Below are positions 20,456 to 63,985 of a stretch of 64,000 nucleotides of DNA, piece by piece. Made by a program: the position numbers and the translations under genes. The DNA comes from Antedon mediterranea (lineage: Eukaryota; Echinodermata; Crinoidea; Comatulida; Antedonidae). Each line of letters starts with the position of its first letter. Position 1 is the first letter of the stretch. The stretch is taken from contig NC_092676.1 in assembly GCF_964355755.1 (NCBI RefSeq), positions 18,892,288-18,956,287 of the forward strand. Reading direction: 5' to 3'. The notes beneath the pieces are model-generated. The model had not been told where the DNA came from. It made no database searches and was given only the letters and a program-made list of their open reading frames with translations.

Positions 20456-21374
20456 CTAGGATAATTCAATGTCATTTTCAGGTATTCGCTGCAAACGTTG
20501 TCTGATCCGACAAAATCCAAGCAACTCGACGCGGAACTGTGGCATAGAAATTGTGTAAATAAAAGGATTTGCAATGAAATTTACAAATACCAAATCTAGT
20601 CCAATAAACCACATACGATTTTTAAATTTAGGATTAGTATTAACAAATTCGCCGACTATGATTATCATAGTGATTGGCACCCAACATAAAACATATACCA
20701 AACTAATAGCTAAAAACATGTTGACTGTTTTAACGTGTACAGACGAATATACTGATGGAGAAGCAGATGTGTGTTTTCGTTTTACTAATTCATGAATTAT
20801 TCTGCTATATACAATTATCATTGTTATCATAATATAGTATAAATAATGATCCCGTAATGGTTTGTACAAATAATACCTCATCTTCTATTCCACAGTTTGC
20901 ATATGCATTGTGATATATTAATTTAACAAAATATATCTCTGGATTTAATAGTAACCCGATAATCCATGCTGATATTATCATTGTTATTGTTTGCCTGATT
21001 GTGTAATGTTCTCTGAAATATATTGGTTTCATTATAGCAAAGTATCTCTCTATTGTAATAAAAACCAGATTCGCCGTAGAAGCATGCGACATCATCCAAA
21101 TTAGACAAGATATTTTACATTGAATATCTCTATAATACAGAGTAGCCCTATGTATTCCATATACTTTCTCCAGTACAACTTGCAATATGAAAATTAAACA
21201 TCCTGTGGCATCGATAAGTGATTGGTTAAAAATAAACCATCGTGTGCTTCGACGGATTGTTAGCGCACGGTTAATCGTCAACAGTACTAAAGCATTGACA
21301 ATTAGTCCAAACGTTGAAAGTGCATACCCGAATTTCACAGCTATCAAGTCGGTATTTTTAAAACTTATATTCAT
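20456..21374 (-). pseudogene. Rhodopsin-family GPCR pseudogene (copy 2, frameshift in TM5)
   Basis: Starts at the ATG at 21374 (MNISFKNTDLIAVKFGYAL) and runs intact through TM1-TM4 and ECL2, with ERYFAIMKP and ISAWIIG. In TM5 (about 20815-20860) bases present in the paralogues are missing (SFMFALS-like residues in copy 3), and the frame shifts to a stop. The remaining TM5-TM7 (IIVYSRIIHELVKRKH, LCWVP, NPFIYTI) continues in another frame to 20456. Both halves otherwise match copies 1 and 3 closely, so the lesion looks recent. A real alternative is an assembly error at this site. Confidence 0.8.
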
Positions 21375-43821: not shown

Positions 43822-46800
43822 TTATTTAGACTTATTCCTCCGCTTGATTTGCTCACAATAGGTATCCGCAATCACCTTCTCTATATTTCTTTCATTTTCC
43901 AGTAAGTTTCGAATATCATCATACGTTACGTCATTTTGAAGAATAATCAATCTACGGAGAAATAAACTCAATTTGAAATGAAACACATAATATAGTAAAT
44001 TCAGTCTTAAAACTTTCCATGAAATAGGCCACATGTGACACACATGCGATGCTATATTACGGAATTCGCCTATGACGGTGGCTAAATATTGTCATGCAGT
44101 ATGTGGAGATACGGCACTGAAAATCGAGTGAATTCAAACTTACCTAGAATCTCTCTTTCTGGCTCGTCCTCTCAATTGAACCAGTGCTGTCGTTGAAGAT
44201 GGTGTGTACAGTAAGATAACTAAATCACACTGTGGGATGTCAACGCCCTCTTCAGCAACGCTTGTTGCAACGATCACCTAAAAGACAACAGTCATAATGA
44301 CAACTCATTTTTATACCTGGGGATTTCGACTCTGCCGAAATTTGCTTCTATCTGGCTACATCAAATACCAACACTACTGTACTATGTTGGCCTACATATT
44401 CTCCGCGGCGCGCGATGTCTGCTAAAAGTGGCGTGTAAATTATCGCGTCGCAGCCACAGATAAACCGTTGATCTCCGAAGCACAGCATCCTGTAGTTATA
44501 CAGTATTGCCTTGCTTGAAATAAGTTTTCCTATTGCATTCTCGGAAAGGATTAATAGTATGCTGTTGATGATGCGAGACACTCGATCACCATCTACAACG
44601 TAGGGCACCGTATAACACTTAAAGAATAATTTGATTCCACAAAGTTCTAACCTGGTACATTTTTCTTTTAATACACTGCAATGCTTGACGTTGCCTACTG
44701 ACAGACATCCCAGGGGCTGTAGTGCCATCTTTTCTTGGCTTCCTATCGCTTCCATGACCCACCAATTTTAGTGCTCGGATATTTTGACTTTTAAAAAAGG
44801 AATGGCTAAAAACAAGATGTTATATGGCACATTAAGTAGGGCCTAAGTGTATGTAGATTATAATTATTATTATATTTTATGTTTAGGCATAATATGTAGC
44901 CAATGATTACCAATAGTAAACAAATCACTGCCCTATCACATAGGTGGTAATCCCCTTGATACAGGGAAGTGTACTGGACCTACGGTGTATATTCCATATC
45001 CTAGAAGACTTGCTCCACCACCACCAGAACTAGGAGCGAGTCGACTTCGAACCCATGCCTATATAAACGGCACTTAACCGATTGACTTAATTATATCAAC
45101 ATATTTTATTAGGTAGCGGAACTAACCACAGGGTATAGGCTCATGCATAACATGTGACGGAAACATCACATCACTATTATTGTCACGCCATAGTTGTTTT
45201 TTGCTGGTATCACCGTCATAAAAAGTCGTCGACGCTAACAGAATAACTGTAATTTTAGTTAGGCCTACCAAATACTTACCTGTTTAACTTTTGTGTTAAC
45301 TCTTCTGCGTCTAACCTCGTTTGAACCATAACCAAAGCAAGTGGTTCGTCATCTCTTCGGTGTTCATCAACAAATCTTCGGCCTAACTGTCTAAGAATCG
45401 ACACAACTAAGGGATTGGAAATCTCACAGTTTTCAACAGATTCCACAAACCGTTTCAAACACTCTTGATTGAGTGAGAACGTATTATTTTTGGAATTGAA
45501 ACATGTATTGATACATTTCTTCGCTTGAACAATACAGTTTCTCGTGCGTAATTGAAATACTGCAGTAACGAATAGAGACACAGACTTTATGGTATAACCA
45601 ATCAAGGGAGAATTCCGCACCTTTTCTCCGTCCGACAGTTCATTTAGAGCATCCAAGACCTGTACAACAGCACCACTATTCAACACATCGTCTGGGTTAA
45701 GATTCCTGTCTTGTAACATGTAAGGCAAATTTGTTTTTGTCATTAATCGTGTTAAACAATGATTTGCCATCGCTATGAATTCAGATAATAGGAATTCAAT
45801 GTCACGATCAAACTCTATCCTTGTCATTTCTAGTTTGCTTTGTGATTTTACTTTATTCAAATCATCCTTACACTTGACCACATGTGTTATTTCTGCATTG
45901 CCTAGATTTGCTAGCAACTGCACTAACACTGACTTTGCGCCTTCTCTAGTCTTCCTTCCCGCTGGTGTTGCAGATATACCGATGATCTTCGGCTTGTGGG
46001 ATGACAAAGTGTAATTTTCTTTCATAATCATGTTGTAAGAGTGGTTCTTAGAACAGTGGTGAGTTTCATCAAAGACTATCAAGCTTATGTTTTGCCAATG
46101 CACAGTTCCTTTTTTAAGCATGTTTCGAAAATACTCTAAAAAAAAAAGATAATACTAGTTTCGAATAAAGCCTCCAGATTAAAGTATTAATCAAAGTTAA
46201 TGATACAATATTTGTGTATTGAAAAAAAAATGTTATAAGTTTTTCTACAAAAGAGAGACAAGTACCTGCAGTGGCTACAAGTAGGCCTACGTATTGACTG
46301 AGAGGCCTACGGTAATTTGACGACGACTTCGTTGTGAATTGTCCACCTCCAGTTACTCCAATCACGTTTGGAGAGTTACGACCATGTCCTTTTAACTCTT
46401 TTATGAAATAGTCGGTTTGTTGGATGCATAGAAGAATTTTGTCAACAAGAAACACAGCAATTCGTCCTGGATTCATGTCCAGCATTGCTTGTATTATCAT
46501 CGCTGCCACCAACGTCTTTCCAGTGCCTTTAAAATTGGAAGTCCAATATTTTATTATAATAATTAGTCACAAAACAGTGGTGTATATCCCTCCTGTACAG
46601 GAGGGCGTGAAACAACCTCTTTCTGTTCAAGCTTGGTTCTGACTAGAGACGCAACACAAGGACGTCTAATCACAAGCGATAACTATTGAAACTGTCGCTT
46701 GTCATTGGTCAACACGCTTTCGTTGCGTTTATGTCAGGGGTGGCGCCAGGATGTTCCCGACGCGGGGGCTACATTCCCCGACGAGGGGGCTATGCGAGCG

Positions 46801-49800
46801 AAGCGAGCATCACTAGGCTGGGGGCCAGGGGGCCGCCAAGGGCCCCCGGTGAGGGTCCAGGGGGCGAAGCCCCCGGAAGCAACGCGTTCTAGCGTCATTT
46901 GAGGTCATTTTAATCAGATTTAGGGTAGCCATTTTTTATAATGCATAAATAAAATACTGCGTGCAAAAAAACGATGCGCGATGACTGTTTCAATCCATAT
47001 TTTTCAATTTAAGAAATAAAAGTTCAAAGAAAATTTAGAAAAATAGAGTTGGAGGTCCCGGAAATTGGACTTATTATACTTCAAAACATGAAATAAAATA
47101 TATAAGTCCCTATCAAGGTTGTGACTGAGCTAAGAAATGTTTGAAAAATAGAGATGTTAGGTCCCGGAAAATGCACTTCTTGTACTTCGAAATATGACCA
47201 GCTTTATTGTTGGGGCTGAGCTAAGAAACTGTTTAAAACTAGAGCTGCAGGTCTTCAAAAAATTGCATTTTATACTTCGGAAACATCAGGCATAGAGGCT
47301 TAAAAAACGCAAGCGTAGACCTTTTTCAGTCGGGGAAATAAGTTTATTCCTCCCAAGTGTATGCGTGCGTCCCATCTGGACTTCCGAGTGATGAGAAATT
47401 CATGACATACAGGACATTGAAAATGTAATAACTTAGCTATAATAAGATGTTGGCTAAGCGAAAATGGCATGTTTTTTTGTTTAGTAATGGATGAAAAATT
47501 TATTTTAGGTGCCCCACGGTACAGAATGTTACTTGTAAATTAAAAAAATTGGTGAACATACGAACAATTAACATAATTCGTTTTTGCTGTAGTGTAGCGT
47601 ACGTCGACGCAGTACACGACGTTAACCGTCAGTAAACTTCGCCTGGAAAATAACTACAGTACACATTTTGGTCCCTGGATGGAATGTGATATCACGCGTC
47701 TCGACCCAACGTTGAACGATTCGTACAAAGGGATACCGCCAGACAAGTGCGAACCTAGCTATTGTTTAGTAGTAAGTTAGATCGCTGGCAATAATGAGTG
47801 CTTATAAAGTGCATAATATCACTCTGACGTACTCTCTCACGGTCAATGAAACGTCGCGGTTTTCTAGGCGCTGAAGCTAGCTACGAAGTGAACGCGAACG
47901 CTTTTTACTGTATATTATATTCCCCGACAAAAAGTACCCGTGTTTCCTTCGGTAACCGTCGGTAAACTTCGCCTGGAAAATAACTACATTACACATTTTG
48001 GTCCCTGGATGGAACTTGATATCACGCGTCTCGACCCAACGTTGAACGATTCGTACAAAGGGATACCGCCAGACAAGTGCGTACCTAGCTAACGTTTAGT
48101 AGTAAGTTAGATCGCTGGCAATAAATGAATGCATAAAAGTGCATACTAGCCCTCTGACGTACTCTCACGGTCAATGGAACGTCGTGGTTTTCTAGGCGCT
48201 GAAGCTATATGAAGTGAACGCGAACGTTTTTTACTGTATATTATATTCCCCGACAAAAAGTACCCGTGTTCCCCGACGGGGGGGGGGGGGGGGGGGGGGG
48301 GGGCTAGGCTCCCCGACGAGGGGGCTAGAGCCCCCGTAGCCCCCCCGCTGGCGCCACCACTGGTTTATGTCCTTGCGTTACGTCTTAAAAATGGGAACTA
48401 ATCTTTACTAAATGGGTTTTAAGACGTAGGTCATAGTAGCAAAGTCAGTGAGATCATTAAGCATCAACCCGATCAATGCCGTCATTAAGCTTGATTTCCA
48501 CCAGGACGCAACCTATGGAATTGACTAATCACAAGCGACAGTTCAGATAATCTATCGCTTTTGATTGGTCAATTTTCTTTTGTTCATTTTTAGTCGCGTG
48601 GAAGCGACTCTATAGTTCACTATGTCGGTCGGTCGGTCTGTCTGTCTGTCTGTCTGTCGGTCCGGTATCACTATGCGTTTTATCGCTTTATGACCTTATC
48701 TTGATATCAGTTTAATCTAGCTAAGTCAATTTTTCACAGAATATTCCTTATGGCCAGGAATCGATGTGGTTATGTTTTCACGGTGCGCAATAAAAAATTA
48801 CGCGGTCTACGCACGATTTAACGAAATCACGTTTGTAATCATATCTTAACAACCATGAATCACAATTAAATAAAATTTGGTACTCATAAATTTCAGGGCA
48901 TAAATCATCATATGGCAATACAATTACGTGCGTAGCGCATGTAACGCATGCGTAAGCGCGCTTAAAATTTTCAAAATTTATTTTTGATGAAATAAGAGTA
49001 CGTTTCAGGCAATTTTAAGCGTTTACAAAATTGCCATGAGTGCGCAGATTTTTGCGCGCGCACTGCGCGTTAAATGTTATTGCGCACTCTTTTTGCCCGA
49101 TTTCTGTTTTCTTGACATACTTTTCAACTCGAAATTACGTTATACGAGCACGTCAAAAGTGACAGGCTACGCACGTGTAAATTAAAAAAATATAAATGTT
49201 TTTAAACATTTTAACATTTTTAAACATGTTCAGTAATTTCGGTCAGTATAGTTCACTATGTCGGTCGGTCCGTCTGTCTGTCTGTCTGTCGGTCTGTTTG
49301 TCTGTCGGTCCGGTATCACTATGCATTGTAGCACGCGACTTAATGGCTGTTGGCCTTGTTTATTGTACATTTACTTTGTATACCGTACTATTTTAAAATA
49401 CATTATTACCTGTTGGAAGGAATATGACCGCATTACGTCTTTCCATAGCTTGATAAAATAGTTCCTTTTGATAAGCTCTTGGTGTAGTTGATGTTAACAT
49501 ATTCACATTCAAATTGTTGTTATTAACGTTTAGCTGTAACGGCGGTGACGATGGCTGTAACGGCGGTGACGATAGCTGTAACGGCGGTGACGGTATCCGT
49601 TTTGGTGTATTTTTTAAGTCTTGGTCGAATGTTAATTTGCTATGTTTTAACGGTAACGGTTGTCGTTTTGTTGAATTGAAAACTCTTTTATGTTTTTGCC
49701 CCTTAATATGCGTTTTGTAATCAGTGATTGACGTAAAACATAACACTCTGCATGGTTGGCAACCTCTTCTCAAAATGTGGGGTATCTGATTGCAGTGTTT

Positions 49801-50109
49801 CTCTGCTGATATCGGGCCACTAAAATGGACATCGCATGTAGAGCAAAATGTCGCAGCATCACTAGGCCTATTAGGCCTACTAGTTATTTCATTGTCTGTT
49901 TCTTTAACAGACTCGAACCATAGCTCTACCATTCGGTGGTGCCTAATGCTTTCGGTGTGGGCCTGGAGAGAAATATTTCCACTCATGTTCTTATTACAAG
50001 CCACACAGTGAAAAACAGCGCCTTTCGCTTCAATAGGGTTTTCAAAAAACACATCCTCCATTAATGATTCGTCGGATGATTGGACTGCAAGATTGTTATT
50101 TTTGTCCAT
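43822..50109 (-). CDS. U1-type zinc-finger / RIG-I-like DExH helicase fusion (copy 1)
   Basis: Six exons join in phase to 738 aa: 49410-50109, 46266-46526, 45280-46135, 44652-44787, 44144-44277, 43822-43951. Exon 1 has three U1/matrin-type fingers: C35-C38-H51-H57, C89-C92-H105-H111 and C117-C120-H134-H140. A Pro/Ser linker and a Q-motif region follow. Helicase motifs: Walker A PTGTGKT (232-238), DETH (343-346, where RLRs have DECH), SAT (375-377), an alpha-helical insert, motif IV near 588-600, LVGHGS, motif [12 protein letters not shown] (655-665) and motif VI QLRGRAR (685-691). NHSYNMIM after the DExH box and the [10 protein letters not shown] block place it with RIG-I/MDA5/LGP2 rather than Dicer. 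There is no CARD, PAZ or RNase III, and it stops about 47 residues after motif VI with no C-terminal RNA-binding domain. The ATG at 50109 is the first in frame; an upstream exon remains possible. A dsRNA-sensing role is inferred. Confidence 0.8.
44020..44115. repeat. Diverged MITE fragment (relative of 1915-2063)
   Basis: GCCACATGTGACACACATGCGATGCTATATTACGG-like sequence followed by TGGCTAAATATTGTCATGCA and GTATGTGGAGATACGGCAC aligns with 2010-2095. It lies in the last intron of helicase copy 1. Confidence 0.45.
44935..45090 (-). mobile_element. tRNA-derived SINE fragment
   Basis: The minus strand has an A-box-like TCGGTTAAGTGC, about 30 bp later a B-box GGGTTCGAAGTC, then a tail containing TTCCCTGTATCAAGGGGATT and ACCACCTATGTGATAGGG. 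This is the layout of invertebrate tRNA-derived SINEs (family knowledge). It has no tRNA fold and lies in the intron between exons 3 and 4 of helicase copy 1. Confidence 0.55.
46627..48407. repeat. Family A MITE interrupted by a hAT-like element
   Basis: The left part at 46627-46734 begins AAGCTTGGTTCTGACTAGAG and reaches CGTTGCGTTTATGT. The right part at 48363-48407 resumes GTTTATGTCCTTGCGTTACG and ends near GGGAACTAATCTTTA. The shared GTTTATGT is the target duplication of the hAT-like insertion, so the MITE was there first. Confidence 0.7.
46735..48362. mobile_element. Non-autonomous hAT-like element, copy 1 (1628 bp)
   Basis: Ends CAGGGGTGGCGCCAG and CTGGCGCCACCACTG, flanked by the exact 8-bp duplication GTTTATGT (46727-46734 and 48363-48370). 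An 8-bp duplication and CAG...CTG ends fit the hAT superfamily (family knowledge). No transposase frame. Subterminal CCCCGACGAGGGGGCTA motifs occur at both ends. A ~340-bp internal unit with GGTAAACTTCGCCTGGAAAA, ATCACGCGTCTCGACCCAAC and ACTGTATATTATATTCCCCG is present twice, and a poly-G run lies near 48279-48303. It lies in intron 1 of helicase copy 1. Confidence 0.8.
48487..48610. repeat. Truncated family A MITE
   Basis: AAGCTTGATTTCCACCAGGA, ACTAATCACAAGCGACAG and ATCTATCGCTTTTGATTGGT in family A order; the right end is missing. Confidence 0.5.
48590..49355 (+). repeat. Paired GTCTGTCTG repeats of the GTCGG family
   Basis: TAGTTCACTATGTCGGTCGG followed by (GTCT)n and GTCCGGTATCACTATGC occurs at 48611-48683 and again at 49247-49323. 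The first is preceded by GTCGCGTGGAAGCGACTC and the second followed by GCACGCGACTTAATGGCTGT. The first block is also at 1680-1790. It lies in intron 1 of helicase copy 1. Confidence 0.55.
49532..49594 (-). repeat. Three 21-bp coding repeats in the helicase linker
   Basis: Three tandem copies of a 21-bp unit (plus strand AGCTGTAACGGCGGTGACGA then T) encode PPLQLSS-like heptads between the zinc fingers and the helicase of copy 1. Copy 2 has no such repeat in its linker. Confidence 0.75.
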
Positions 50110-50508
50110 CGTTGTTGTCCTACTGGTTTTAATAATATTCAAGTTATTCTCTGTCCTACTACGTTTCAACGACCATAAAGGGGAGCAAATTTAATAGGCC
50201 TAGTTAAAAATAAGTAAAAATATATACCAATACAATACAAGTAGTGAAAGTCGTATATAATAACGCTCAATGATAGAGTTATACAGCTTGTTTGTAATTA
50301 TTTCTCTTTACTTTGGCTTTTAATGTATATACTAGACTTTAAGATATTTAAATAAAAAAATAGGCCTACAACTAATTAAAATAAATAAATAATTAATTTT
50401 TAACAAAATTCACACTTAACTGTTGCAATTAGCTATCGTGCGGTATTAAACATGTTAGTTAGTGGTTAAGTAATATAAAAACGATGCGCGAACATTGTTT
50501 CAGTATTG

Positions 50509-50644
50509 TTCGTTTGGTTCCAACTAGGACGCCACGCAAAGATGTAAGCGCCACATATGATTTGACCAATCAAGCGATGAATTATTTGAACTATCACTTA
50601 TCATTGGTCATTGCCGCCTACAGTTATTGGAACCAACCTTTAAG
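50509..50644. repeat. Diverged family A MITE
   Basis: GTTTGGTTCCAACTAGGACG ... ATTGGAACCAACCTTTAAG with CGCCACGCAAAGATGTAAGC and TTGACCAATCAAGCGATG inside. It lies just upstream of helicase copy 1. Confidence 0.55.
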
Positions 50645-51192
50645 CCTAGGCCTAGTCTACGGCAGGTATAATTATGTTAATTTGAAAATTACCAAATAGT
50701 ACCTAGTTTTACACACAAATGTTTACATTTAAACTTTTTTTTTACACCCGCGTTATGTAAAATCAATGCCCCGTTGTTAACAATTGGTGGATACATAAGT
50801 TTGGGACTCCTTATATGAAAGATAGCCGAACTACTTCCTAAATAAAACATGAATAGGCTACGCATGTAAAATGAGTTGCTCATGGGATCAGAACCCCATA
50901 CATCGACATGCAAAGTCCATAGTCCAATTCTTACGTCACAGCTTATGGATATGACTAATGAATATTCATGTTTGTTTTGTGACGTTTCATGAGGGGTCCC
51001 AACTTATGTACGAAAAGAAATATTGCAACCGGCGACGGCGATGTAAGTTTGTTTCTCTTGAATTATTTAATTTACTTACTTTTACCCTCCATGCTTACAT
51101 TATGTAGACAAACTTTTAATTAACTTGAATTAAATTCATCACATTTATATCATAATTCTATTGATCTCTTATTATACTACAGCCGTATGTAC

Positions 51193-52614
51193 CAGGGGTG
51201 GCGCCAGGATCTTCCCGACGCGGGGGCTACATTCCCCGACGAGGGGGCTATGCGAGCGAAGCGAGCATCACTAGGCTGGGGGACAGGGGGGCCGGCAAGG
51301 GCCCCCGGTGGGGGTCCAGGGGGCGAAGCCTCCGGAAGCAACGCATTCTAGCGTCATTTGAGGTCATTTTAATCAGATTTAGGGTAGCCATTTTTTCCAT
51401 TTTTTATAATGCATAAATAAAATACTGCGTGCAAAAAAACGATGCGCGATGACTGTTTCAATCCATATTTTTCAATTTAAAAAATAAAAGTTCAACGAAA
51501 ATTTAGAAAAATAGAGTTGGAGGTCCAAAATATATAAGTCCCTATCATGGTTGTGACTGAGCTAAGAAATGTTTGAAAAATAGAGATGTTAGGTCCCGGA
51601 AAATGCACTTCTTGTTCTTCGAAATATGACCAGCTTTATTGTTGGGGCTGAGCTAAGAAAATGTTTAAAACTAGAGCTGCAGGTCTTCAAAAAATTGCAT
51701 TTTATACTTCGGAAACGTCAGGCCTAGAGGCTTAAAAAGCGCAAGCGTAGACCTTTTTCAGTCGGGGAAATAAGTTTATTCCTCCCAAGTGTATGCGTGC
51801 GTACCATCTGGACTTCCGAGTGGTGAGAAATTCATGACATAGGCCTACAGGATATTGAAAATGTAATAACTTAGCTATAATAAGATGTTGGCTAAGCGAA
51901 AATAGCATGTTTTTTTGTTTAGTACGGAATGGATGAAAAATTTATTTTAGGTGCCCCACGGTACAGAAGGTTACTTGTAAATTAAAAAATTGGTGAACAT
52001 ACGAACAATTAACATAATTCGTTTTTGCTGTAGTGTAGCGTACGTCGACGCAGTACACGACGTAACCGTCGGTAAACTTCGCCTGGAAAATAACTACAGT
52101 ACACATTTTGGTCCCTGGATGGAACATGATATCACGCGTCTCGACCCAACGTTGAACGATTCGTACAAAAGTGAACGCGAACGCTTTTTACTGTATATTA
52201 TATTCCCCGACAAAAAGTACCCGTGTTCCCTTCGGTAACCGTCGGTATACTTCGCCTGGAAAATAACCACATTACACATTTTAGTCCCTGGATGAAACTT
52301 GATATCACGCGTCTCGACCCAACGTTGAACGATTCGTACAAAGGGATACCGCCAGACAAGTGCGTACCTAGCTAATGTTTAGTAGTAAGTTAGATTGCAT
52401 AAAAGTGCATATTAGCCCTCTGACGTACTCTCACGGTCAATTGAACGTCGTGGTTTTCTAGGCGCTGAAGCTATAGGCCTATGAAGTGAACGCGAACGTT
52501 TTTTACTGTATATTATATTCCCCGACAAAAAGTACCCGTGTTCCCCGACGGGGGGGCTAGGCTCCCCGACGAGGGGGCTAGAGCCCCCGTAGCCCCCCGC
52601 TGGCGCCACCACTG
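51193..52614. mobile_element. Non-autonomous hAT-like element, copy 2 (1422 bp)
   Basis: Same ends as the copy at 46735, CAGGGGTGGCGCCAG and CTGGCGCCACCACTG, flanked by the exact 8-bp duplication GTATGTAC (51185-51192 and 52615-52622). Internally it is close to copy 1, but one internal unit is deleted between GATTCGTACAAA and GTGAACGCGAACG (near 52170) and it has shorter G runs. No transposase. It lies between the two helicase genes. Confidence 0.8.
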
Positions 52615-52622
52615 GTATGTAC

Positions 52623-54856
52623 GCGCACGCCTAATATTATGTGAGCTTTCGCATCTGAACGATCAGAAGAAAGAAGACGATAAATCTATACGAAAGATTA
52701 AACTGCGTATTAATATTGGTCCATGGGCAAACGTTTGTCCATGATTGGTCGAACTGGCATTCAGTCCAACAACCAGACGGAGCAAAGTTTATGACGTCAT
52801 GGTGAAACTTTTCAACTGTAAAAAAATGGCCGCTCAGCCTACGAAGCGAAATACAGTAGCCTATACTGTATTTCATTCTGTGTTCATTCATTTTTAGTTA
52901 ACTCTAAAAATTAGATATGTATATAGTAGTACATTATGTAGAATGTGTGAAGACTGTCTAAATACATAAACAAAATCAACATAGAAAAGGGCCTACTCTA
53001 TTTTAGATCACCAGGCCTAAACTTTACTGACTTAATTAAGAGTAAGACATCGCCTGGCAAAAAACGTACTTTGAATAAATTCTTAAACGCCTATCAAGCC
53101 TGCAGGACGCGTATATAATCAGCTGCCTGGAGGTGGTTTAGAAGTGAGGCATGACCGTCGTCGCTGTCTTTTGTTTGTTACGTCCCGATGCGAAAGCTCA
53201 TGTCTATGATATTGTGAAACTTCTAATTTGAAACAAAACAAGTAACTTTCTGTTTGCTTACTTACTTCTTAATATTCAACTGTCGGGTAGAATTCAAATA
53301 TTCAACGTGTTTTATACAGTACAGAGTCACTCATGGTGCTGTCTATAGAGCCGTATTATTATTATACACGTGACACAACACGTGACACGGTTGTGTAAGC
53401 TTATAACTGTACACAATCAATACATGCCTCATTGAAAATTTAAAAACCCCGCGAAAAATACGATTTGCAATGGCCTTTTTTTCTTTTCTGGCTATCGTCT
53501 ACCTTTACTATTCGCATAAAACATTTTCTCTTTTAATAGAGATATCTCTATTAATAGAGATATCATAGAAGAGATTAATTTTTCTTTATTTAACTTTATG
53601 AACCATGTCATTACCAATGATTTTCGGACATCAACACAGTAGGCCTAATGTTAATAAACGTATGAAAGTAGGGCGGGTTAGGGCAGAGGAAAATCATATT
53701 TTGCCCTTCGACCACCGCTAACACTGGGCCTACAAAGATTGGCCCTTAAGATCACATCAACTCCTCTGTATAACAGTTTGCATAACCAAAATACAAGAAG
53801 TTCGTATTTCTAAAAACACCCGAATATTTATGCCAAAAAGGTTGTAGAGATATTATTATATACAAGAAATATTTCTTACAACAAAACGCCGCTCGACATT
53901 TTAAAATTAATCATTGTTCTTTCTTCAGATATATTAAATGATTAATTATTAACTGCAAAAATACATACAAATCAAAGATAGTTCTTTAATTATGAATCAC
54001 ACTATGCCTATTTTTTCACTAGTTAATTGTACTATAGATGCACATTTTTTTAATAATTTATGGACATTTTGTTACCATGGAAACGTGTAACAAATTAAAA
54101 ATATGTTGGTTAATCGTAAAAATATACAAAATCTAACATAGCTATTTAATTGTAAATCACATCATGCCCATTTTGGTTAGTGTTAGTAATCTGGTTGTAT
54201 TTCATTGAATAATTGATATTTCTGCTAATTTTCAACAGCATTTGAAAGAAGACATGTGGACTTTCCAACAATGTATTATTTGCATAATAATAATCTACTA
54301 ATTAAAAAATGGCATTTAAAAATGGTAAAATTTGAACTTAATGTGCTGTGTGTGTGTGACCTCAACCTGTAGGCATGCAACTGAATACCCTCTAGAGTCA
54401 ACGTGACTTCACGGTGGTACAAGTGAGAAATTCTTCCGCAGTCTGTTGATTCGCGTCAACCAATCAAAGGGCGAGAATCCAAAATCGTTCAACCGTGGGC
54501 CCTCATAGACTCTCTTTTCCCATACGTTTTTTGGGTCCAGCAGCTGGGACCTATAAATTATAGTCGAGTTTACAAATTCACAAAACTGTCGGCCTTAGAA
54601 CTATAGCTACCGCGATGATAAAAGCTTCTTAATGAGTATATCCTCTTGGGACATAGGTGGCTAAAGTCGCGACGCGAAAAAAAGAATTACATAACTTATA
54701 GAACTGTGATGGCGCTAGTTAGTCTTCGATATGCGTTATTAATAGAATGACGTAATGCATGCTATAAATAGTTGATTGCATGGACAGGTGGATCGGCGAA
54801 TTGTACGCACTTGTATTGTAACAGGACATTGTTGTTGTTGTTTCTCAATTCTTTCT
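52623..54856. other. Intergenic between helicase copies
   Basis: No coding exon was supported. A palindrome-rich AATAGAGATATCTCTATTAA block lies near 53537-53570. A TATA-like GTATATAATC near 53110 has no convincing downstream frame. Confidence 0.35.
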
Positions 54857-55486
54857 TTAAATTTGCTGCTCACAATAGATATCCGCAATCACCTTCTCCA
54901 TATTTTTTTCATTTTCCAGTAATCTATAAATATCATCCTGAGTGGCGTCATTTTGAAGAATAATTAATCTATGAAGAAAATAATTTCAATTCAATAAACT
55001 TACACTTTTTACAGAGAAGCATCAAAATAACGAAATACTAATACAGAGACCTGAGAATGCCAGTAAGTTACTAAACAAAATAATTTAAGAAAAATTACTG
55101 CAGAAAGGAGAGAATTCTTTCTTTGTTTTGTTAAAATATTAATCGAACTTGCCTAGAATCTTTCCTCCTGGCTCGTCCTCTCAATTGAACCAGTGCTGTC
55201 GTTGTAGATGGTGTGTACAGTAAGATAACTAAATCACACTGTGGGATGTCAACGCCCTCTTCAGCAACGCTTGTTGCAACGATCACCTAAAACACAATAA
55301 AAGAACACTGTTTATGTGGTTTTGCACTCAATAATGACGGTCTAAGTTTTCATTTACGCAATTCCATCGACATTATCTGAAAATGAAGTTAATTTTAAAA
55401 TGCATTCTCAGTCCCGGTAGTTCGTTTTATGAAAAAAGTGAGACTCCCTCTTCCCCACACATCCCCAGCAAACGGGCAAGATTCTT

Positions 55487-55687
55487 AAGCTCTGTCTACA
55501 CTATCAAACTTTATATGACAAGAAAATGTGATGTGCCTATATATGGACATGATGATGTCAAATCACTACCATATTTGGGCATATCACTACCATATTTAGG
55601 CATATCACTACCATATTTAGGCATATCACTACCATATTTGGGAACATCACATTATCAAACTAGTTTGATAGTGTAGACAGAGCTTTA
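55487..55687. mobile_element. MITE with TIR AAGCTCTGTCTACACTATCA and 21-bp internal repeats
   Basis: The ends AAGCTCTGTCTACACTATCA and TGATAGTGTAGACAGAGCTT are inverses. The interior has about four tandem copies of CATATTTAGGCATATCACTA plus C (21 bp, so a heptapeptide repeat in one frame). It lies in an intron of helicase copy 2. A partial copy is at 366-505. Confidence 0.8.
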
Positions 55688-57396
55688 GGCAACTGTTAAA
55701 ATTCGTCAAATTGGTCAACTTAAAACCACTTTAAGAATAAAAATAATGATTCCACAAACTTCTAACCTGGTACATTTTTCTTGTAATACACTGCAATGCT
55801 TGACGTTGCTTACTGACAGACATCCCCGGGGCCGTTGTAGTGCCATCTTTTCTTGACTTCTTGTTGCTTCCATGACCCACCAATTTTAGTGCTTTGATTT
55901 TGTGATATTTTAAAAAGTGATGACTATAAGAGAAAATGTTAGACATTAATTTGGTCCTTTTTCCTAAGTGTATATTAATTTACAGTAGTTTACTAGTCAG
56001 CGTTTAGAACTAGTCTCGCACAATTTCTTCCGGAGTTTTTCTGCGACATTGACAACCCTATCAAACTATGTTTTAATTACTTTAGCACTTACCTGTTTAA
56101 TGTTTGCGTCAACTCTTCTGCGTCTAACCTCGTTTGAACCATAACCAAAGCAAGTGGTTCATCATCTCTTCTTTGTTCATCAACAAATCTTCGGCGCAAC
56201 TGTCGAACAATTGCTACTACCAAGTGATTCGAAATATCGCAGTTTTCAACAGATTCCACGAATCGTTTCAAGTGTTCAAATGTACCGTAACTGAAATGTT
56301 CTTTGATAAATATTTTCACTTGAGGAAGACAGTTTCTTGTGCGTAATTGAGATATGGCAATAACCAATTGTTTCATGTAATGTACTATATCCTCGAGGTA
56401 ATTGCTCAGATTTTCTCCGTCCGACATTTCATTTAGAGCATCCAAGACCTGTACAACAGCACCACTATTCAAGACATCTTCTGGGTTAAGATTCCTGTCT
56501 TGTAACACGCAAGAAAAAACTGTTTTTGTCATTAACTGTCTTAAACAATGATTTGCCATCGCTGTAAATCCAGATAACAAGATTTTAATTTCTTTATCAA
56601 ACTCTATCTTTGTCATTTCCAGTTTGCTTTGTGACTTTACTTTATTCAACTCTTCCTTACCCTCCTTCACATATGCTATTTCTGCACTGCCTAGGTTTGT
56701 TAGCAACTGTACTAACACTGATTTTGAGTCTCTTCTAGTCGTCATTCCCGCTGGTGTTGCTGAGAATCCGATGATCTTAGGCTTGTGACGTGATACTGTG
56801 TAATGCTCTTTCATGATCATGTTATAAGGGTGATTTTTGGTACAGTGGTGTACTTCATCAAAGACTATCAAACATATGTTTTCCCAATGTACAGTTCCTT
56901 TTTTAAGCATGTTTCGAAAATATTCTTTGAAAAAGAACAAGAAAAATTATGTAGGGCCTACGCCACGTAAGGAAATGCATGCGTGTGCAAATGATGGAGG
57001 ATGGAGAGAAAACCACCCATTTTCTGGCCCCTCTAAAATCTATAATTCACCTGTTTTGGATATCCCGAGATCCGCTCCAAAAGAGACTAGGCCTACTAAC
57101 ATAATACGAATTACAGAACTTTGAAATTCAAGATACAGTAAAATCAAAGTAGGCCTACCTGCAGTGGCTACAAGAACTTGATACTGACTGAGAGTCCTAC
57201 AGTCATTTGACGACGACTTCGTTGTGAATTGTCCGCCTCCAGTTACTCCAATCACTTCTGGAGGGTTACGACCATGTCCGTTTAACTCTTTTATTAAGTA
57301 GTCGGTTTGTTGGATACACAGAAGAATTTTGTCAACAACAAACACAGCGATTCTTTGTGGATTCATGTCCAGCATTGCTTGTATGATCATCGCTGC

Positions 57397-57532
57397 TGTT
57401 ATATCTTATGTGTCTTTATTGCATCTTTCATTGTGTGTACATACAGATTACTAACCATGTGGTTATAGTGTATCGATCTACCTTAACCCATAATGCCTTG
57501 CTTTCCCTTAGTCTCCCAATCCAGACACTACA
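57397..57532 (-). repeat. 3' LTR
   Basis: 136 bp. On the element strand it starts TGTAGTGTCTGGATTGG and ends GATATAACA. It contains AATAAA in GATGCAATAAAGACAC, a likely polyadenylation signal. Identical by eye to 62007-62142. Confidence 0.9.
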
Positions 57533-57547
57533 TCTTCCCCCTTCTTT
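57533..57547 (-). other. Polypurine tract
   Basis: The element strand reads AAAGAAGGGGGAAGA directly before the 3' LTR, the plus-strand priming site for reverse transcription. Confidence 0.8.
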
Positions 57548-57851
57548 AGCTAAACTCACAACCCAATTAACTCCATACAATATGATATTCATTTTTTTTT
57601 TTTTTTTTTAACTTTAACAATAACAAAACAATTTAACTTTAAACTTTAAATCAAATATCATCATACATGCATATTATAAATGTTTCCTTGATCACATATC
57701 ATTTCTTATTATTTCCAAGATTCCTATAATATCAATGAACAACTTAGCATATAATAGCACTTAAAACTTTCAACATCTTAACGAAATCTCAACTTCTGGT
57801 GAACTTTAAAAATTAACATAACTCATAAATATGACTTCTTAATTTTACACT

Positions 57852-60800
57852 TTAAAAATCATCAAACCTCTTGGGTTTTCTCTTCTCTCTTACTGGTCTG
57901 CTTTTAACTATCATATTTTCATTACTCTTTGTTATTTTGTCACTTTGCTCAGTATCAACTGGCTTATTCTGTTCAGTGTTATCAATCTTACTGTTACCAT
58001 TAACTTTACTAGTATCAATTTGTTTTAAATTATCATTTGGTGTGTTAACATTTGCTTCATTTACTCTTTCATTATAGGATCGAACATGTGTCGAATTCCT
58101 TTTGTATCTTACACCCTGTGGTGATTCAACCACTACACTATTCCCTTTTTTCTCTATTACTACATATGGTTCTGTGTGATATGGCGTACTCATCTTGTCC
58201 CTCTGTGTCACTTTCACTAAAACCTTATCTCCTTTACACACATCACTTTCCTTCGCACCTCTCTTCTCATCAATGTACAGTTTGTTCTTTAATTTAGACA
58301 CGGCATCACGATCAGAAATTTCTTCGTCCATTATTGTATTGTCATCTAATTCTGGCAATTTTGTACGCAACTTTCTATTCCACATCATTTCTGCTGGTGT
58401 CACTCCGGTAACACTATGTGGGGTTGTACGATATGCGAATAGGTACACTCGTAATTCTTTTTTCCAGTCTTTTCCTTCAGCTTGCGCAATGCGAATTCTT
58501 TTCATTAGTGATCTATTTTGTCGTTCAACCTCTCCGTTTGCAGCTGGATGTAATGGTGTTACACGTCTATGTCTGATTCCATTTTCCTTCAGGTAGGTTT
58601 CAAACTCATTGGACACAAACTGGGCACCATTATCTGAGGTAATTGATTTTGGTATGCCATGTTGAACAAACATATTTTCAAGTGTGTCTATAATTTTCTC
58701 ACTTGTGATTGTCTTCATTAAACTAATTTCATAATAACGACTATAATAGTCTACCACCACTAGTACATTATCCTTCGATGGAAACGGTCCCAGCAAGTCA
58801 ATCGAAATATCTTGCCATGGTCCTGTTGGTAGTTGTGTTGGCTGCAATGGTTCTGGTGCTGGCATCGAACTTGTTATCTGACACTCATGACATGTTTTAA
58901 CATAGTCTTCCACATTCTTCTCCATCCCAGGCCACCATACCTTGGTTCTAAGCCTTTGCTTGGTTTTGACTATCCCCAAGTGTCCTTGGTGTGCTAATTC
59001 AATACACTGTAATCTATATTTTTCTGGAATTACAATCCTTCTGTTTCTAAGAATTAAATATCCAAAACATGCAAGTTCTTGTTGTATTGCATTATACTGA
59101 ATCAAGTCTCTGTCCCATTTATCTGTCCGTATACTATTTCTCACTTTACTCAATTCAGGATCTTCCTTTGATGCCTCTTCAACTTCACGTGATGATAGTG
59201 CACATGGGGTTGCATTTGATGCTACCAATCGAATATACATCTCTGTGTCATCACTGTCATTATTCTGTTTGCCATCAGTTTCTATTGGTAACCTTGATAA
59301 TATATCAGCAATGTTATTCTTACCAGGTACATACTTTACTGTATAAGAATAGGACATAAGTCTCATCACCCACCTTTCAATCCGTGCATTTGGTTTAGAC
59401 TTTGGTCCATACAGGCCTTCGAGTGGTTTATGGTCAGTTATCAATTCAAACTGTAGTCCATATAAGTAAACATGAAACCTTTCCATAGCCCATACCACTG
59501 CCAATGCCTCTTTCTCCGTTGTTGAATATTTCTTTTCAGTAGCTGATAATGTTCGGCTTGCATAACTTATAACTCTGGTTTCACCATTGTATTTCTGAAT
59601 TAAAACTCCACCAATGCCTACATTGCTTGCATCTGTCACCAACTGAGTACTTTCTGCATCTAATCTGAAATAGCCTAAACATGTTTCATTAGTTAAGCAT
59701 TTCGTAAGTTTTACATAACTATTTTCTTGTTCAGACCCCCAATAGAAATTACAATCTTTTCGCACTAGTCGTCTTAAGGGTTCCGCAACTGTAGCTAAAT
59801 TTGGAATGTATCGTGCTGAGAAGTTAACTAGACCTAAGAAACTTTTTACTTCTGCAGCTGTTTTTGGTCTCTTTGATTCTGCCAATGCTCTGACTCGCCC
59901 AATTGTAGGTTTGATTCCGTTTGCTGACAATATGTGACCCATGAATGTTATCTGTGATACAGAAAATTGACACTTATCCTTGTTGAGAGTCAAATTCTTT
60001 TCTTTAAATTTCTCAAGCACTACACGAAGTCTGTCATCATGTTCAGTCTGTGTTCTCCCGTGTACAACAATGTCATCTGATATGTTAGCTACACCTTCGC
60101 ATCCACTCAGCGTCTGACTGATTACTCTTTGGTACTTTTCAGGGGCAGCATTTATCCCGAACATCAACCTTTTGTACCGATAAAGACCTTTGTTAGTTAT
60201 GAAAGTTGTGATGTTTCGTGATTGCTCATCTAATTCAATTTGGTGATAGCCGTAATTCATGTCTAATTTAGAGAACACTGTACTTTGATTCATTTCATAC
60301 AACACTTCATCAACTGTTGGGATTGGATGCCTCTCCCTTTTAACTGCTCGGTTGGCCTGCCTCATATCTACGCAGAGGCGTATATCCCCATTTGGTTTTG
60401 GCACTACTATGACTGGACTTACCCAATCACTTGGTTCGTCTACCCTTTCAATTATGTCAAGAGATTCTAACTCATCTAATTTATCACTCACTTTATCTTT
60501 GAGACTAAACGGTATTCTATACATGCTCTGAACAACTGGTGTTACCTGTTCATCAATAAATAAATGTAACTTATAATCTTTTAATTTACCAATACCTTCA
60601 AATACCTGTGTATACTTATCTTGTACACTATTTATCACTTGTGGTATTACAATATTTAACACTCCAAGCTTCATTGCAGTATCACCTCCCAACAAAGCAG
60701 GGCCTTTCCCTTTTAACACATATACATCTGCTGTTATTTTAGGCTCAGTATTATTACCTGTACCTTGAAAAATTGACATGTTCGTAGTAAATTTTCCTAA

Positions 60801-61910
60801 CAACTCTAATGGTTTTTCTGACCCATATGCATATAACTTTCTGTTTGTCAACTCAGATTTGCATTTAATTTTCTTGGATTTTAACTGTTGCCATAAATAC
60901 TGATCTATGATATTAACTGTAGCACCACTATCAACAATCATTTCTACCTTATGTACATCCATACAAACATTTATCTTTGTAGTTTTAGAATTATTATTTT
61001 GTATACCAAAAGCATAGTCATCGTCTTCACTTCCATTTTGAACATTACTAATACCACTACTCTTTTTGTCTTTACCTAATTTAGTTTTGCAACAAATAGC
61101 AAAATGTCCCAAAATTTTACATTTATTACATTTCTTGTCTCTTGCAGGACAACATTTATCCTTAGCCAAATGTCCTTCTCTTCCACAGCGAAAGCATTTC
61201 CGGTTATCTTGTCTATCATTGAACTTTGACTTACTTGTTCTGTTAGGCCTACCACTTGAATTTCCAGCTTGGTACCTGTTTCTGCTCGTCGTGCTTGATC
61301 TTGACCATCTCTCATTCCTCACTGCATTCATGTTTGTTGTTTCCACTCCATTAACTTCTTGTGACATCTCCTTTGCTTGCTTCTCACTCATTTCAAATGT
61401 GCTAGCTATTGCTTTTAAATTGGTTAATTTCAAAGTATTTCCTTTTTCTAGCAATTTTAGTCTCAGTCTATTTGATTTGCATTTTTCAATAACATGGTCT
61501 CTAATTAACTCATCAACATTCGCATCATCAAATTCACATTTTGCAGCCTGCTGCCTCAATCTGTTTATAAATTGGTGAATTGTTTCGTCATCACCTTGCG
61601 TCAGTTTTCTAAAACAATAACGCTCATACGGTACGTTGGTTTTCATAGCAAATTGTTTATTTAATGTGTTTACAACAACATCATACTCATCTGTTCCGTT
61701 CTCCTCTGTTAAACAGTCATATATGTCCTGTACAGCCATTCCGGAGCAATGCAATAACAAAGCTTTCTTTTGGTTTTTGTCTACTACTCCTTTACCAGTA
61801 GCATATAATTCAAAACTGCGAAGCCATTTCTTCCACCGTTCAGCCGAAGCGTGCACATCGTGTGGATCATACGCAGCGATTCCAGTGATTTCAACGTTTA
61901 CAGCGGTCAT
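57852..61910 (-). CDS. Retrotransposon Gag-Pol polyprotein
   Basis: A single intact 1352-aa frame from the ATG at 61910. In order: a gag region; two zinc knuckles at about 236-275 (CFRCGREGHLAKDKC, CNKCKILGHFAICC); an aspartic protease with DSGA near 325; a reverse transcriptase with KLDMNYGYHQIEL near 547 and the catalytic aspartates in NISDDIVV near 610, where Ile-Ser replaces the usual Tyr/Phe-x before DD; RNase H (VTDASNVGIGG, about 757); an integrase with an HHCC finger (HQGHLG...CHEC, about 975-1010) and DDE residues in DLLGPF, SDNGAQF and GEVERQN (about 1036-1126); and a C-terminal basic tail. No envelope gene. No stop or frameshift was seen, so it could be autonomous. Confidence 0.9.
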   Translation of the reverse strand: MTAVNVEITGIAAYDPHDVHASAERWKKWLRSFELYATGKGVVDKNQKKALLLHCSGMAVQDIYDCLTEENGTDEYDVVVNTLNKQFAMKTNVPYERYCFRKLTQGDDETIHQFINRLRQQAAKCEFDDANVDELIRDHVIEKCKSNRLRLKLLEKGNTLKLTNLKAIASTFEMSEKQAKEMSQEVNGVETTNMNAVRNERWSRSSTTSRNRYQAGNSSGRPNRTSKSKFNDRQDNRKCFRCGREGHLAKDKCCPARDKKCNKCKILGHFAICCKTKLGKDKKSSGISNVQNGSEDDDYAFGIQNNNSKTTKINVCMDVHKVEMIVDSGATVNIIDQYLWQQLKSKKIKCKSELTNRKLYAYGSEKPLELLGKFTTNMSIFQGTGNNTEPKITADVYVLKGKGPALLGGDTAMKLGVLNIVIPQVINSVQDKYTQVFEGIGKLKDYKLHLFIDEQVTPVVQSMYRIPFSLKDKVSDKLDELESLDIIERVDEPSDWVSPVIVVPKPNGDIRLCVDMRQANRAVKRERHPIPTVDEVLYEMNQSTVFSKLDMNYGYHQIELDEQSRNITTFITNKGLYRYKRLMFGINAAPEKYQRVISQTLSGCEGVANISDDIVVHGRTQTEHDDRLRVVLEKFKEKNLTLNKDKCQFSVSQITFMGHILSANGIKPTIGRVRALAESKRPKTAAEVKSFLGLVNFSARYIPNLATVAEPLRRLVRKDCNFYWGSEQENSYVKLTKCLTNETCLGYFRLDAESTQLVTDASNVGIGGVLIQKYNGETRVISYASRTLSATEKKYSTTEKEALAVVWAMERFHVYLYGLQFELITDHKPLEGLYGPKSKPNARIERWVMRLMSYSYTVKYVPGKNNIADILSRLPIETDGKQNNDSDDTEMYIRLVASNATPCALSSREVEEASKEDPELSKVRNSIRTDKWDRDLIQYNAIQQELACFGYLILRNRRIVIPEKYRLQCIELAHQGHLGIVKTKQRLRTKVWWPGMEKNVEDYVKTCHECQITSSMPAPEPLQPTQLPTGPWQDISIDLLGPFPSKDNVLVVVDYYSRYYEISLMKTITSEKIIDTLENMFVQHGIPKSITSDNGAQFVSNEFETYLKENGIRHRRVTPLHPAANGEVERQNRSLMKRIRIAQAEGKDWKKELRVYLFAYRTTPHSVTGVTPAEMMWNRKLRTKLPELDDNTIMDEEISDRDAVSKLKNKLYIDEKRGAKESDVCKGDKVLVKVTQRDKMSTPYHTEPYVVIEKKGNSVVVESPQGVRYKRNSTHVRSYNERVNEANVNTPNDNLKQIDTSKVNGNSKIDNTEQNKPVDTEQSDKITKSNENMIVKSRPVREKRKPKRFDDF

Positions 61911-61995
61911 CGTTACAACAGTATTAAAACAAATATATCGCCAAAAATTACAGTATTGAAACTTCTAATCACTTGTGGTTCGATATTCTCCTTAA

Positions 61996-62005
61996 CTCGT
62001 CGCCA
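61996..62005 (-). other. Primer-binding site, tRNA-Ser type
   Basis: TGGCGACGAG lies one base inside the 5' LTR on the element strand. It is complementary to the CTCGTCGCCA 3' end expected of animal tRNA-Ser(GCU) (tRNA end from memory). Confidence 0.65.
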
Positions 62006-62006
62006 A

Positions 62007-62142
62007 TGTTATATCTTATGTGTCTTTATTGCATCTTTCATTGTGTGTACATACAGATTACTAACCATGTGGTTATAGTGTATCGATCTACCTTAACCCA
62101 TAATGCCTTGCTTTCCCTTAGTCTCCCAATCCAGACACTACA
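62007..62142 (-). repeat. 5' LTR
   Basis: 136 bp, identical by eye to the 3' LTR. Its first bases on the gene strand (TGTAGTGTCTGGATTGG then GAGACTAA) place a stop in the frame of the interrupted helicase exon. Confidence 0.9.
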
Positions 62143-62189
62143 GCTGCCACCAACGTCTTTCCAGTGCCTTTAAAATTTGAAGTCAAGTT

Positions 62190-62340
62190 TTAATACTCCT
62201 TTTATATCGCCTAACAGACTCCAGAGCTGAGTAAGTATACACACTGTGGTGTCAACGCCGGCATTTCGTATGGTGTGCGCTCCGCAGTGTGTGTTGGCTC
62301 TGGAGTTTTCTAGGCGATGGGAAAGGAGAATAGTAATAAC
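62190..62340. mobile_element. Imperfect-TIR MITE
   Basis: TACTCCTTTTATATCGCCTA and CAGACTCCAGAGC at the left are mirrored by GCTCTGGAGTTTTCTAGGCG and GGGAAAGGAGAATAGTA at the right. It is about 150 bp and non-coding, in intron 1 of helicase copy 2. Confidence 0.6.
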
Positions 62341-63848
62341 ATATAGTCACAATCATCAGATTCAGTGGTGTATCTACCAAACCCAGTCGATCCCAATGAC
62401 ATCATCACAACGTCATCGTCAACGTGTCATTATCATCATCATTTGCATCACATAACAATCATACTTATTGTTGTAAATTTATATAGGCCTATTGTAGGCT
62501 ATATTATTATTATATTGTGATTGTTTTAAGATTACGTTATTGGGCCTACCTGTTGGAAGAAATATGACCGCATTACGTCTTTCCATAGCCTGACCAAATA
62601 GTTCCCTTTGATAAGTTCTTGGTGTAGTTGACGTCAACTTATTCACATACAAACTGCCGTTAAAGTTTATCTTTATCGGTCGTAACAGTTGCCGTTTTGG
62701 TGCATTAATTAAGCCGTGATCAAAAATATTTTTTTTATGTTTTTGCCCCTCAACATGTGTGTTATAATGACTTTTTGACGAAAAACATAACACTCTGCAT
62801 GGTTGGCAACCTTTTCTGAGGTCATAGTCAGAATCAAGAGATGAACTTCTGTACGATAGGGGTGTTTGTATATGGTGTTTGTTCTTATAATGTTGATTTG
62901 CCGGTATCGGACCACTAAAGTGGACATCACACAAAGAACAAAAAGTTGCATCACAACCTTCCATTCCATTGGCTGGTTCATTGGGACTAACAGACTCTAG
63001 CCATTGTTCTTCCAGTTGACGGTGTTTGATGCTTTCGATGTGGGCCTGGAGAGGAATATTCCCACTCATGTTCTTATTACAAGCCACACAGTGAAAAACA
63101 CCGCCTTTTGCTTTAATAGGGTTTTCAAAAAACACATCTTCATTGGATGATTCGTCGGATGATGGATCAGATTCCTCAGTTGTAACGGTTTCTTCCGCTG
63201 ATTCGTAGGATGATTTGTCATATGTCCCACTAGCACACAATAACTTTGGATGTTTTCTAGGCCTAGTGGTGTTAATAAGGTCTGAATCATCCCTGTATCT
63301 AAGATTGAACGTACGTGAAAGAGGAACCATCTTTGTAATTCTAAATTTGGTTGTCTTAAGATCTTCTGTCACTCTGTAAAAATAGCATTAATAATGCACA
63401 TACAGACACTATATTTCTGTACAATATACGTTGTTCACAACTCTCCCCCTCCCCCCGCCTCTCTATCTCTTTGTTATTGGCAAAGAGAGCCCGTGAAATT
63501 GTCTTTAAATGAGGTTATAATATCCCAAAATTAGACATTTTAAGGCCAATCTATCCAATCAAATTTAAAAGAAGCTAATTTCGCTTGATTCTGGTGGTGT
63601 GGCTGTCACAATTTTCCAAAAAAAGTGACGGGTGGGGAACAGTCCCTTTTTTGGTGGGGGAGGGATGGGGGCGGATCAATGATCAGTGTCCTCAAATATA
63701 ATCGTGTTTGGTCTCATTTGAAAGTAAATTTAATTTTAAACACTGGAAACTGATTGCTATGGCAAGGCAATAAAACAAAAATGTCGACTGAATATATATA
63801 GGCCTACTTTTTTTAAAGGTAAAAATATAAAGCTAGGGCCTACCGGTT

Positions 63849-63985
63849 TTTCCTGGAGGTGAAAAGTGTCTGGTAAAGGCGACAACGACGTCTTTTGGGT
63901 TGGGATTGCAACCGTAGTCTTGAAATGGTTGTAAGCGTACATGATTTCCTACCCATTCTTGGTTCCTTTGAAAACCTCTATGATT
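63849..63985 (-). CDS. Candidate coding exon upstream of helicase copy 2
   Basis: Between an acceptor AAATCATAG and a donor ACCG/GTAGGC the minus strand stays open and encodes NQEWVGNHVRLQPF, DYGCNPNPKDVVVAF and TRHFSPPGKT. It ends in phase 1. A secondary acceptor (GTGACAG) near 63366 would continue it in frame into finger exon 1 of copy 2, and copy 1 has an equivalent phase-1 acceptor near 50154. No similar exon was found upstream of copy 1. It could instead belong to an unrelated gene extending past the window edge. Domain not recognised. Confidence 0.35.

What the first reader, a model, noticed from the sequence alone, without database searches (positions are those of the whole stretch)
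43822..63330. Tandem genes fusing three U1/matrin-type zinc fingers to a RIG-I-like helicase
Two adjacent same-strand genes encode three C-X2-C-X12/13-H-X5-H fingers, then a complete DExH helicase whose motifs (HPYNMIM after the DExH box, [17 protein letters not shown]) match the RLR family. Known RLRs use CARDs or nothing at the N-terminus. U1/JAZ-type fingers often bind dsRNA. A finger-RLR fusion could be a dsRNA sensor or effector that recognises RNA through the N-terminus instead of a C-terminal domain. I do not know a described protein with this layout.
Basis: partly seen in the sequence, partly recalled or inferred. Interest (0 to 1): 0.88.

Follow-up and report, generated by a model that had tools for sequence, protein, structure and literature searches.

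The report
Zinc-finger Dicer-like helicases in feather stars
A feather-star gene pair joins RNA-binding-type zinc fingers to a helicase of the kind used by virus-sensing and gene-silencing proteins; the same fusion turns up in molluscs and forms its own branch beside Dicer, pointing to an overlooked animal protein family that probably handles double-stranded RNA.

Summary
On the minus strand of an Antedon mediterranea (feather star) contig lie two tandem copies in which one exon encodes three C-x2-C-x12/13-H-x5-H fingers plus the start of a helicase. Copy B (43.8-50.1 kb) gives 744 aa, identical to NCBI's 'DHX58-like isoform X2'. Copy A is broken by a 4.7-kb Ty3/gypsy element in its motif-I exon; NCBI's isoform X1 joins its finger exon to copy B's helicase.
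The fusion also occurs in a second crinoid and seven named mollusc species (1-12 fingers; 0 of 49 other hits have one). In a 38-row tree the family is one clade (100/100) beside Dicer (99/98), outside RIG-I-like receptors (AU p=0.016; but 0.0585 in an earlier 35-row set). No CARD, RIG-I C-terminal domain, PAZ or RNase III was found; ATPase motifs are intact. Finger 1 is modelled like U1/JAZ RNA-binding fingers, with middling scores.
Best reading: a third lineage of duplex-RNA ATPases that grips dsRNA through N-terminal fingers. RNA binding, ATPase activity and antiviral role are inferred.

The parts
49410..50109 (-). Copy B exon 1: ATG, three fingers, linker, start of helicase (YQKEL ... IFLPTG)
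   Evidence: donor gtaata; start of NCBI P0002
49939..50007 (-). Copy B finger 1 (residues 35-57), C-x2-C-x12-H-x5-H; zf-met / jaz
49777..49845 (-). Copy B finger 2 (residues 89-111)
49690..49761 (-). Copy B finger 3 (residues 117-140), C-x2-C-x13-H-x5-H
46266..46526 (-). Copy B exon 2: rest of motif I (TGKT) to before the DExH box
45280..46135 (-). Copy B exon 3: motif II DETHH, motif III SATPA, helical insert, motif IV
44652..44805 (-). Copy B exon 4: HEL2
44144..44277 (-). Copy B exon 5: motif [10 protein letters not shown] and motif VI QLRGRAR
43822..43951 (-). Copy B exon 6: pincer-like helix and stop; no C-terminal domain found
63844..63956 (-). Upstream coding exon used in NCBI isoform X1
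   Evidence: this exon + 63373-62550 + copy B exons 2-6 gives P0003 exactly (823 aa)
62550..63373 (-). Copy A exon 1: three fingers, linker, helicase start (ATG of the shorter model at 63330)
62143..62167 (-). Copy A exon 2, first 25 bases (motif I), ending at the transposon; contains target duplication GCAGC
57397..62142 (-). Ty3/gypsy LTR retrotransposon splitting copy A exon 2; 136-bp LTRs identical, one open gag-pol frame
57159..57396 (-). Copy A exon 2, remainder, with second copy of GCAGC
56093..56924 (-). Copy A exon 3 (DEVHH)
55767..55923 (-). Copy A exon 4
55153..55286 (-). Copy A exon 5 (motifs V, VI); GC donor
54857..54968 (-). Copy A exon 6 and stop
   Evidence: NCBI P0004 (488 aa) = copy A from 57390 to here

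Best explanation
The gene encodes a duplex-RNA-activated ATPase of a third lineage next to Dicer and the RIG-I-like receptors. The N-terminal U1/JAZ-type fingers hold the backbone of an RNA duplex without sequence preference, and the HEL1-Hel2i-HEL2 core closes round the same duplex and spends ATP. Because no nuclease, CARD or RIG-I C-terminal domain was found, it would act by clamping, moving along or handing on dsRNA (viral or endogenous) to a partner such as Dicer, an Argonaute pathway or another sensor. Shown here: architecture, intact ATPase motifs, clade, lower dN/dS in domains than in the linker, fold predictions. Inferred: dsRNA binding, ATPase activity, partner, antiviral use.
Confidence: 0.6

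Rival explanations
1. It is a RIG-I-like receptor that lost its CARDs and C-terminal domain and gained fingers (an LGP2-like regulator).
For: Best fold matches are RLRs; NCBI names it DHX58-like; in the 35-row set RLR + finger helicases is not rejected (AU p=0.0585).
Against: RLRs form a group without it (99/96, 99/98, 93/92); with more rows AU rejects the union (p=0.0159; that larger set was made after the smaller one had not rejected it); the best PDB sequence match is the reconstructed animal Dicer ancestor, 4.3e-36 against 5.4e-31 for RIG-I.
Confidence: 0.12
2. It is a housekeeping RNA helicase (for example in splicing, microRNA precursor or transposon RNA handling) and not an immune protein.
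For: Finger 1 neighbours come from spliceosomal and TUT proteins; no CARD found in the members scanned.
Against: The helicase belongs to the Dicer/RLR group, whose known members act on dsRNA; variable finger number (1-12) does not look like a housekeeping gene. The searches were capped, so the apparent patchiness is weak evidence.
Confidence: 0.22
3. Fingers and helicase are separate genes wrongly joined.
For: Long introns (2.9 kb between exons 1 and 2 of copy B) and repeats; NCBI's X1 joins exons of two copies.
Against: Fingers and the first part of the helicase lie in one open exon in both copies; the same order in Anneissia and in seven named mollusc species.
Confidence: 0.02

Closest known systems
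Dicer helicase domain (HEL1-Hel2i-HEL2)
   Same: Nearest group (99/98), same motifs and insert; best PDB sequence match is the reconstructed ancestor AncD1D2
   Different: No Dicer dimerisation, PAZ or RNase III domain by Pfam in the members scanned; fingers in front; 10 of 12 sequences with motif VI end 39-48 aa after it
RIG-I-like receptors (RIG-I, MDA5, LGP2)
   Same: Fold of the dsRNA-bound core; HPYNMIM motif as in RIG-I; no CARD, as LGP2
   Different: Separate group; no RIG-I C-terminal domain PF11648 found; N-terminal fingers
JAZ / ZNF346 and ZFa dsRNA-binding finger proteins
   Same: Finger spacing, Pfam jaz/met models, matches to 1zu1 and 2mkd
   Different: No helicase in those proteins (recalled)
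C. elegans Dicer-related helicase DRH-1
   Different: Weaker sequence match (8t5s, 1.1e-20); DRH-1 has a C-terminal domain (title) and no such fingers (recalled). Not placed in my trees

Membership tests
RIG-I-like receptors | SF2 core HEL1-Hel2i-HEL2 | tested here: met
   the Hel2i part of the model has pLDDT 51-74
RIG-I-like receptors | Falls inside the RLR clade | tested here: not met
   AU p=0.0159, but p=0.0585
RIG-I-like receptors | RIG-I C-terminal RNA-binding domain (PF11648) | tested here: not met
   no match at E up to 1 in both window proteins and in P0003, P0005-P0007, nor at E up to 0.01 in P0029-P0033, P0057, P0059-P0061, P0066
RIG-I-like receptors | N-terminal CARDs (RIG-I, MDA5; not LGP2) | tested here: not met
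   same scans:
Dicer | PAZ and tandem RNase III domains | tested here: not met
   same scans:
Dicer | Helicase inside the Dicer clade | tested here: not met
   beside it, not within: Dicer 8 rows 99/99, family 11 rows 100/100, joined 99/98
FANCM/Hef | Helicase in that clade | tested here: not met
   9, 9 and 10 FANCM/Hef rows form the other side at 100/100
U1/matrin/JAZ-type zinc fingers | C-x2-C-x12-H-x5-H fingers with beta-hairpin and long kinked helix | tested here: met
   zf-met above cut-off, spacing, finger 1 model only
U1/matrin/JAZ-type zinc fingers | dsRNA binding (JAZ) | not testable with these tools
   needs a binding assay
Duplex-RNA-activated ATPases | ATPase raised by dsRNA | not testable with these tools
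   only intact motifs shown

The most novel reading that the evidence does not exclude
The finger helicases are an ancient third branch of the animal dsRNA-helicase clade, older than the split between molluscs and echinoderms, that supplies ATP-driven dsRNA recognition where Dicer's own helicase has weakened (passages of PMC10159624, report such weakening before and in deuterostomes and degenerate ATPase motifs in some mollusc Dicers), with finger number tuned by lineage; in Antedon a transposon has just turned a tandem pair into one helicase with two alternative finger exons.
Probability: 0.2. Interest if true: 0.85.

Novelty: new variant of a known kind. Interest (0 to 1): 0.7.

Why it matters
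Animal dsRNA helicases are usually described as Dicer on one side and RIG-I-like receptors on the other. A separate branch that carries its own RNA-binding-type fingers, found here in crinoids and molluscs and named inconsistently in databases ('DHX58-like', 'Dicer homolog 3a-like', 'dicer 2-1', 'RIG-I-like', 'uncharacterized'), would add a missing player to invertebrate antiviral and small-RNA biology. It is directly testable with recombinant protein and in bivalves, where poly(I:C) challenge has been used (PMC5557890 passages; PMC7773633 abstract start).

Tried and rejected
Separate-gene artefact: rejected, because fingers and helicase start share one open exon. RLR membership: not upheld, by tree and missing C-terminal domain, with the caveat. 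The 38-row set was assembled after one search had failed to reject RLR + finger helicases, and all AU groups were named after a tree had been seen. Close link to the RdRP-helicase fusion P0036: not claimed; it is a long branch joined to another long branch, so both were left out. Rows dropped: unk_P0014 and fragment P0033; RdRPhel_P0036, DCL_Durusdinium, Dicer_Tephrocybe and the reconstructed AncD1D2. Other proteins returned (metagenomic Dicer pieces, RecG proteins, near-duplicates, truncated family models) were never put in trees; DRH proteins neither. Human Dicer, DCL1 and DCL4 rows lack the middle of the helicase.

Distribution: the three protein searches each scored only about 8000 candidates sharing most words, so absence from other phyla is not shown; horizontal transfer was not tested. 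Whether Antedon also has ordinary Dicer and RLRs could not be tested: the genome search did not complete. RNA evidence behind NCBI isoforms X1/X2 could not be seen. Paper searches that listed nothing; one search listed one unrelated paper; I saw the listings (20 of 24, 6 of 7, 5 of 6) and read passages of some. The Aplysia immunome paper does not name the Aplysia member LOC101845957 in its main text; supplements were not readable. The word zinc does not begin any word in the main text of PMC5557890 and PMC8476169.

Full report
What is there. The 64-kb window comes from the feather star Antedon mediterranea: the spliced product of 50109-43822 (minus strand, six exons, five GT-AG introns) is 744 aa and identical to an NCBI protein of that species named 'ATP-dependent RNA helicase DHX58-like isoform X2'. 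The first exon (49410-50109) carries three zinc fingers with spacing C-x2-C-x12/13-H-x5-H, a linker, and the start of a helicase up to the first half of motif I; motif I is completed across the splice (PTG|TGKT). Because fingers and helicase start share one open exon, their linkage does not rest on gene prediction. Pfam gives, for copy B, DEAD 1.2e-19, Helicase_C 3.9e-13, zf-met 1.6e-5 and zf-C2H2_jaz 1.9e-5, all above cut-off. Shuffles of the protein give 0.007 such fingers on average.

The second copy. Copy A (63330-54857) has the same exon plan, but its motif-I exon is split by a Ty3/gypsy element of 4746 bp (57397-62142). Its LTRs are 136 bp long and identical (the script compared 141 positions and found 3 differences, all in the last five, which lie outside the LTR), the target duplication is GCAGC, and pieces of the single open frame match zinc knuckle, reverse transcriptase, RNase H and integrase models. 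I infer a young insertion. With the flanks joined the exon is open and the product 757 aa. NCBI has the remainder as a separate 488-aa 'uncharacterized protein' starting at 57390 (P0004), and an isoform X1 of 823 aa in which an upstream exon (63956-63844) and copy A's finger exon are spliced to exons 2-6 of copy B; my splices reproduce both letter for letter. So the annotated state is one helicase with two alternative finger exons. Whether reads support X1 could not be seen. Between copies dN/dS (NG86) is 0.46 overall, 0.28 in HEL1, 0.34 for the N-terminus with fingers, 0.56 around Hel2i, 0.52 in HEL2 and 1.03 in the linker of 33 codons (one pairwise estimate).

Relatives. Three protein searches gave 19 proteins that I count as family: Antedon (3 models), Anneissia japonica (817 aa), Octopus vulgaris (732 aa, 'dicer 2-1'), Mytilus edulis (2), M. 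trossulus and M. coruscus, Mercenaria mercenaria (1669 aa), Aplysia californica (1641 aa), Elysia marginata (1526 aa), and seven unnamed ones (P0030, P0033, P0059, P0060, P0066, P0067, P0069). P0067 and P0069 were counted from their listing and the motif scan; I did not read their sequences. Seventeen of the 19 hold the finger motif (1 to 12 copies); P0004 and P0058 do not: P0004 starts behind the transposon and P0058 starts inside the last finger. None of the other 49 proteins returned has the motif; three partial members (P0066, P0067, P0069) were assigned mainly by their fingers, so the contrast is not wholly independent. Motifs I, II, III, V and VI are present in 12 of 13 sequences examined (copies A and B among them); the 13th, P0033, is truncated; my pattern for motif IV also missed Elysia. 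Of the 12 with motif VI, 10 end 39-48 aa after it, P0005 86 and P0059 226. No CARD, RIG-I C-terminal, PAZ or RNase III domain was found in the 16 family sequences scanned. The searches were capped at about 8000 candidates each, so other phyla are not excluded.

Placement. Trees of the helicase core (IQ-TREE, C20 mixture) with 35, 31 and 38 rows separate FANCM/Hef, RLRs, Dicers and the finger helicases. The finger helicases are one clade (100/100, 100/99, 100/100), with crinoids and molluscs as sister groups inside and the unnamed P0060 outside both. They group with Dicer at 98/96 (that group also holds two long rows, P0036 and Durusdinium; Dicer itself is only 87/69 there), 93/93 and 99/98. 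Forcing them with RLRs is rejected in the largest set (p-AU 0.0159) and not in the 35-row set (0.0585); leaving them outside RLR + Dicer has p-AU 0.0414 and 0.0895. The larger set was made after the smaller result. I conclude a separate lineage, probably nearest Dicer. In sequence comparison with the PDB the reconstructed animal Dicer ancestor scores best for the Antedon, Aplysia and family-profile queries, followed by RIG-I or MDA5.

How it most likely works. Shown: architecture, intact motifs, clade, predicted folds. Inferred from families: dsRNA-stimulated ATPase (duplex-RNA-activated ATPases; PMC8659333, passages read) and dsRNA contact by fingers. Inferred with less support: a role in antiviral or small-RNA pathways through partners, since no effector domain was found. 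A link worth testing: PMC10159624 (passages read) reports a decline of Dicer ATPase function towards deuterostomes and degenerate ATPase motifs in some mollusc Dicers; the finger helicases keep theirs and occur in both groups. Aplysia has an ordinary Dicer and RIG-I-like genes besides the finger helicase (PMC9334734, passages read).

Novelty. Paper searches of the held open-access library listed no description of a U1/JAZ-finger RLR/Dicer-type helicase; subscription papers are not covered. I rate it a new variant of a known kind: a known helicase type and a known finger type in a combination I found no account of, spread over two phyla.

Noticed in passing
57397-62142: Ty3/gypsy retrotransposon with identical 136-bp LTRs and an open gag-pol frame, inserted in the motif-I exon of copy A.
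   Followed up: yes
11528-12580, 20456-21410, 22931-23872: Three similar receptor-like frames on the minus strand; the first and third match 7tm_1, the middle one appears as two overlapping frames and was not scanned.
   Followed up: partly
P0036 (unnamed organism): An RNA-dependent RNA polymerase domain (PF05183) behind a helicase of the Dicer/RLR group; long branch in the tree.
   Followed up: partly
46683-46902 and 51124-51416; 47300-48364 and 51732-52630: Stretches whose meaningless ORF translations resemble each other, probably dispersed repeats; not aligned.
   Followed up: no
55562-55650: 21-bp minisatellite, 4.2 copies, in the intron between copy A exons 4 and 5.
   Followed up: no
copy A and copy B coding exons: Synonymous divergence between copies is 0.59 at the fingers, 0.30 in HEL1, 0.35 around Hel2i and 0.18 in HEL2, as if the 3' parts had undergone gene conversion.
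   Followed up: no
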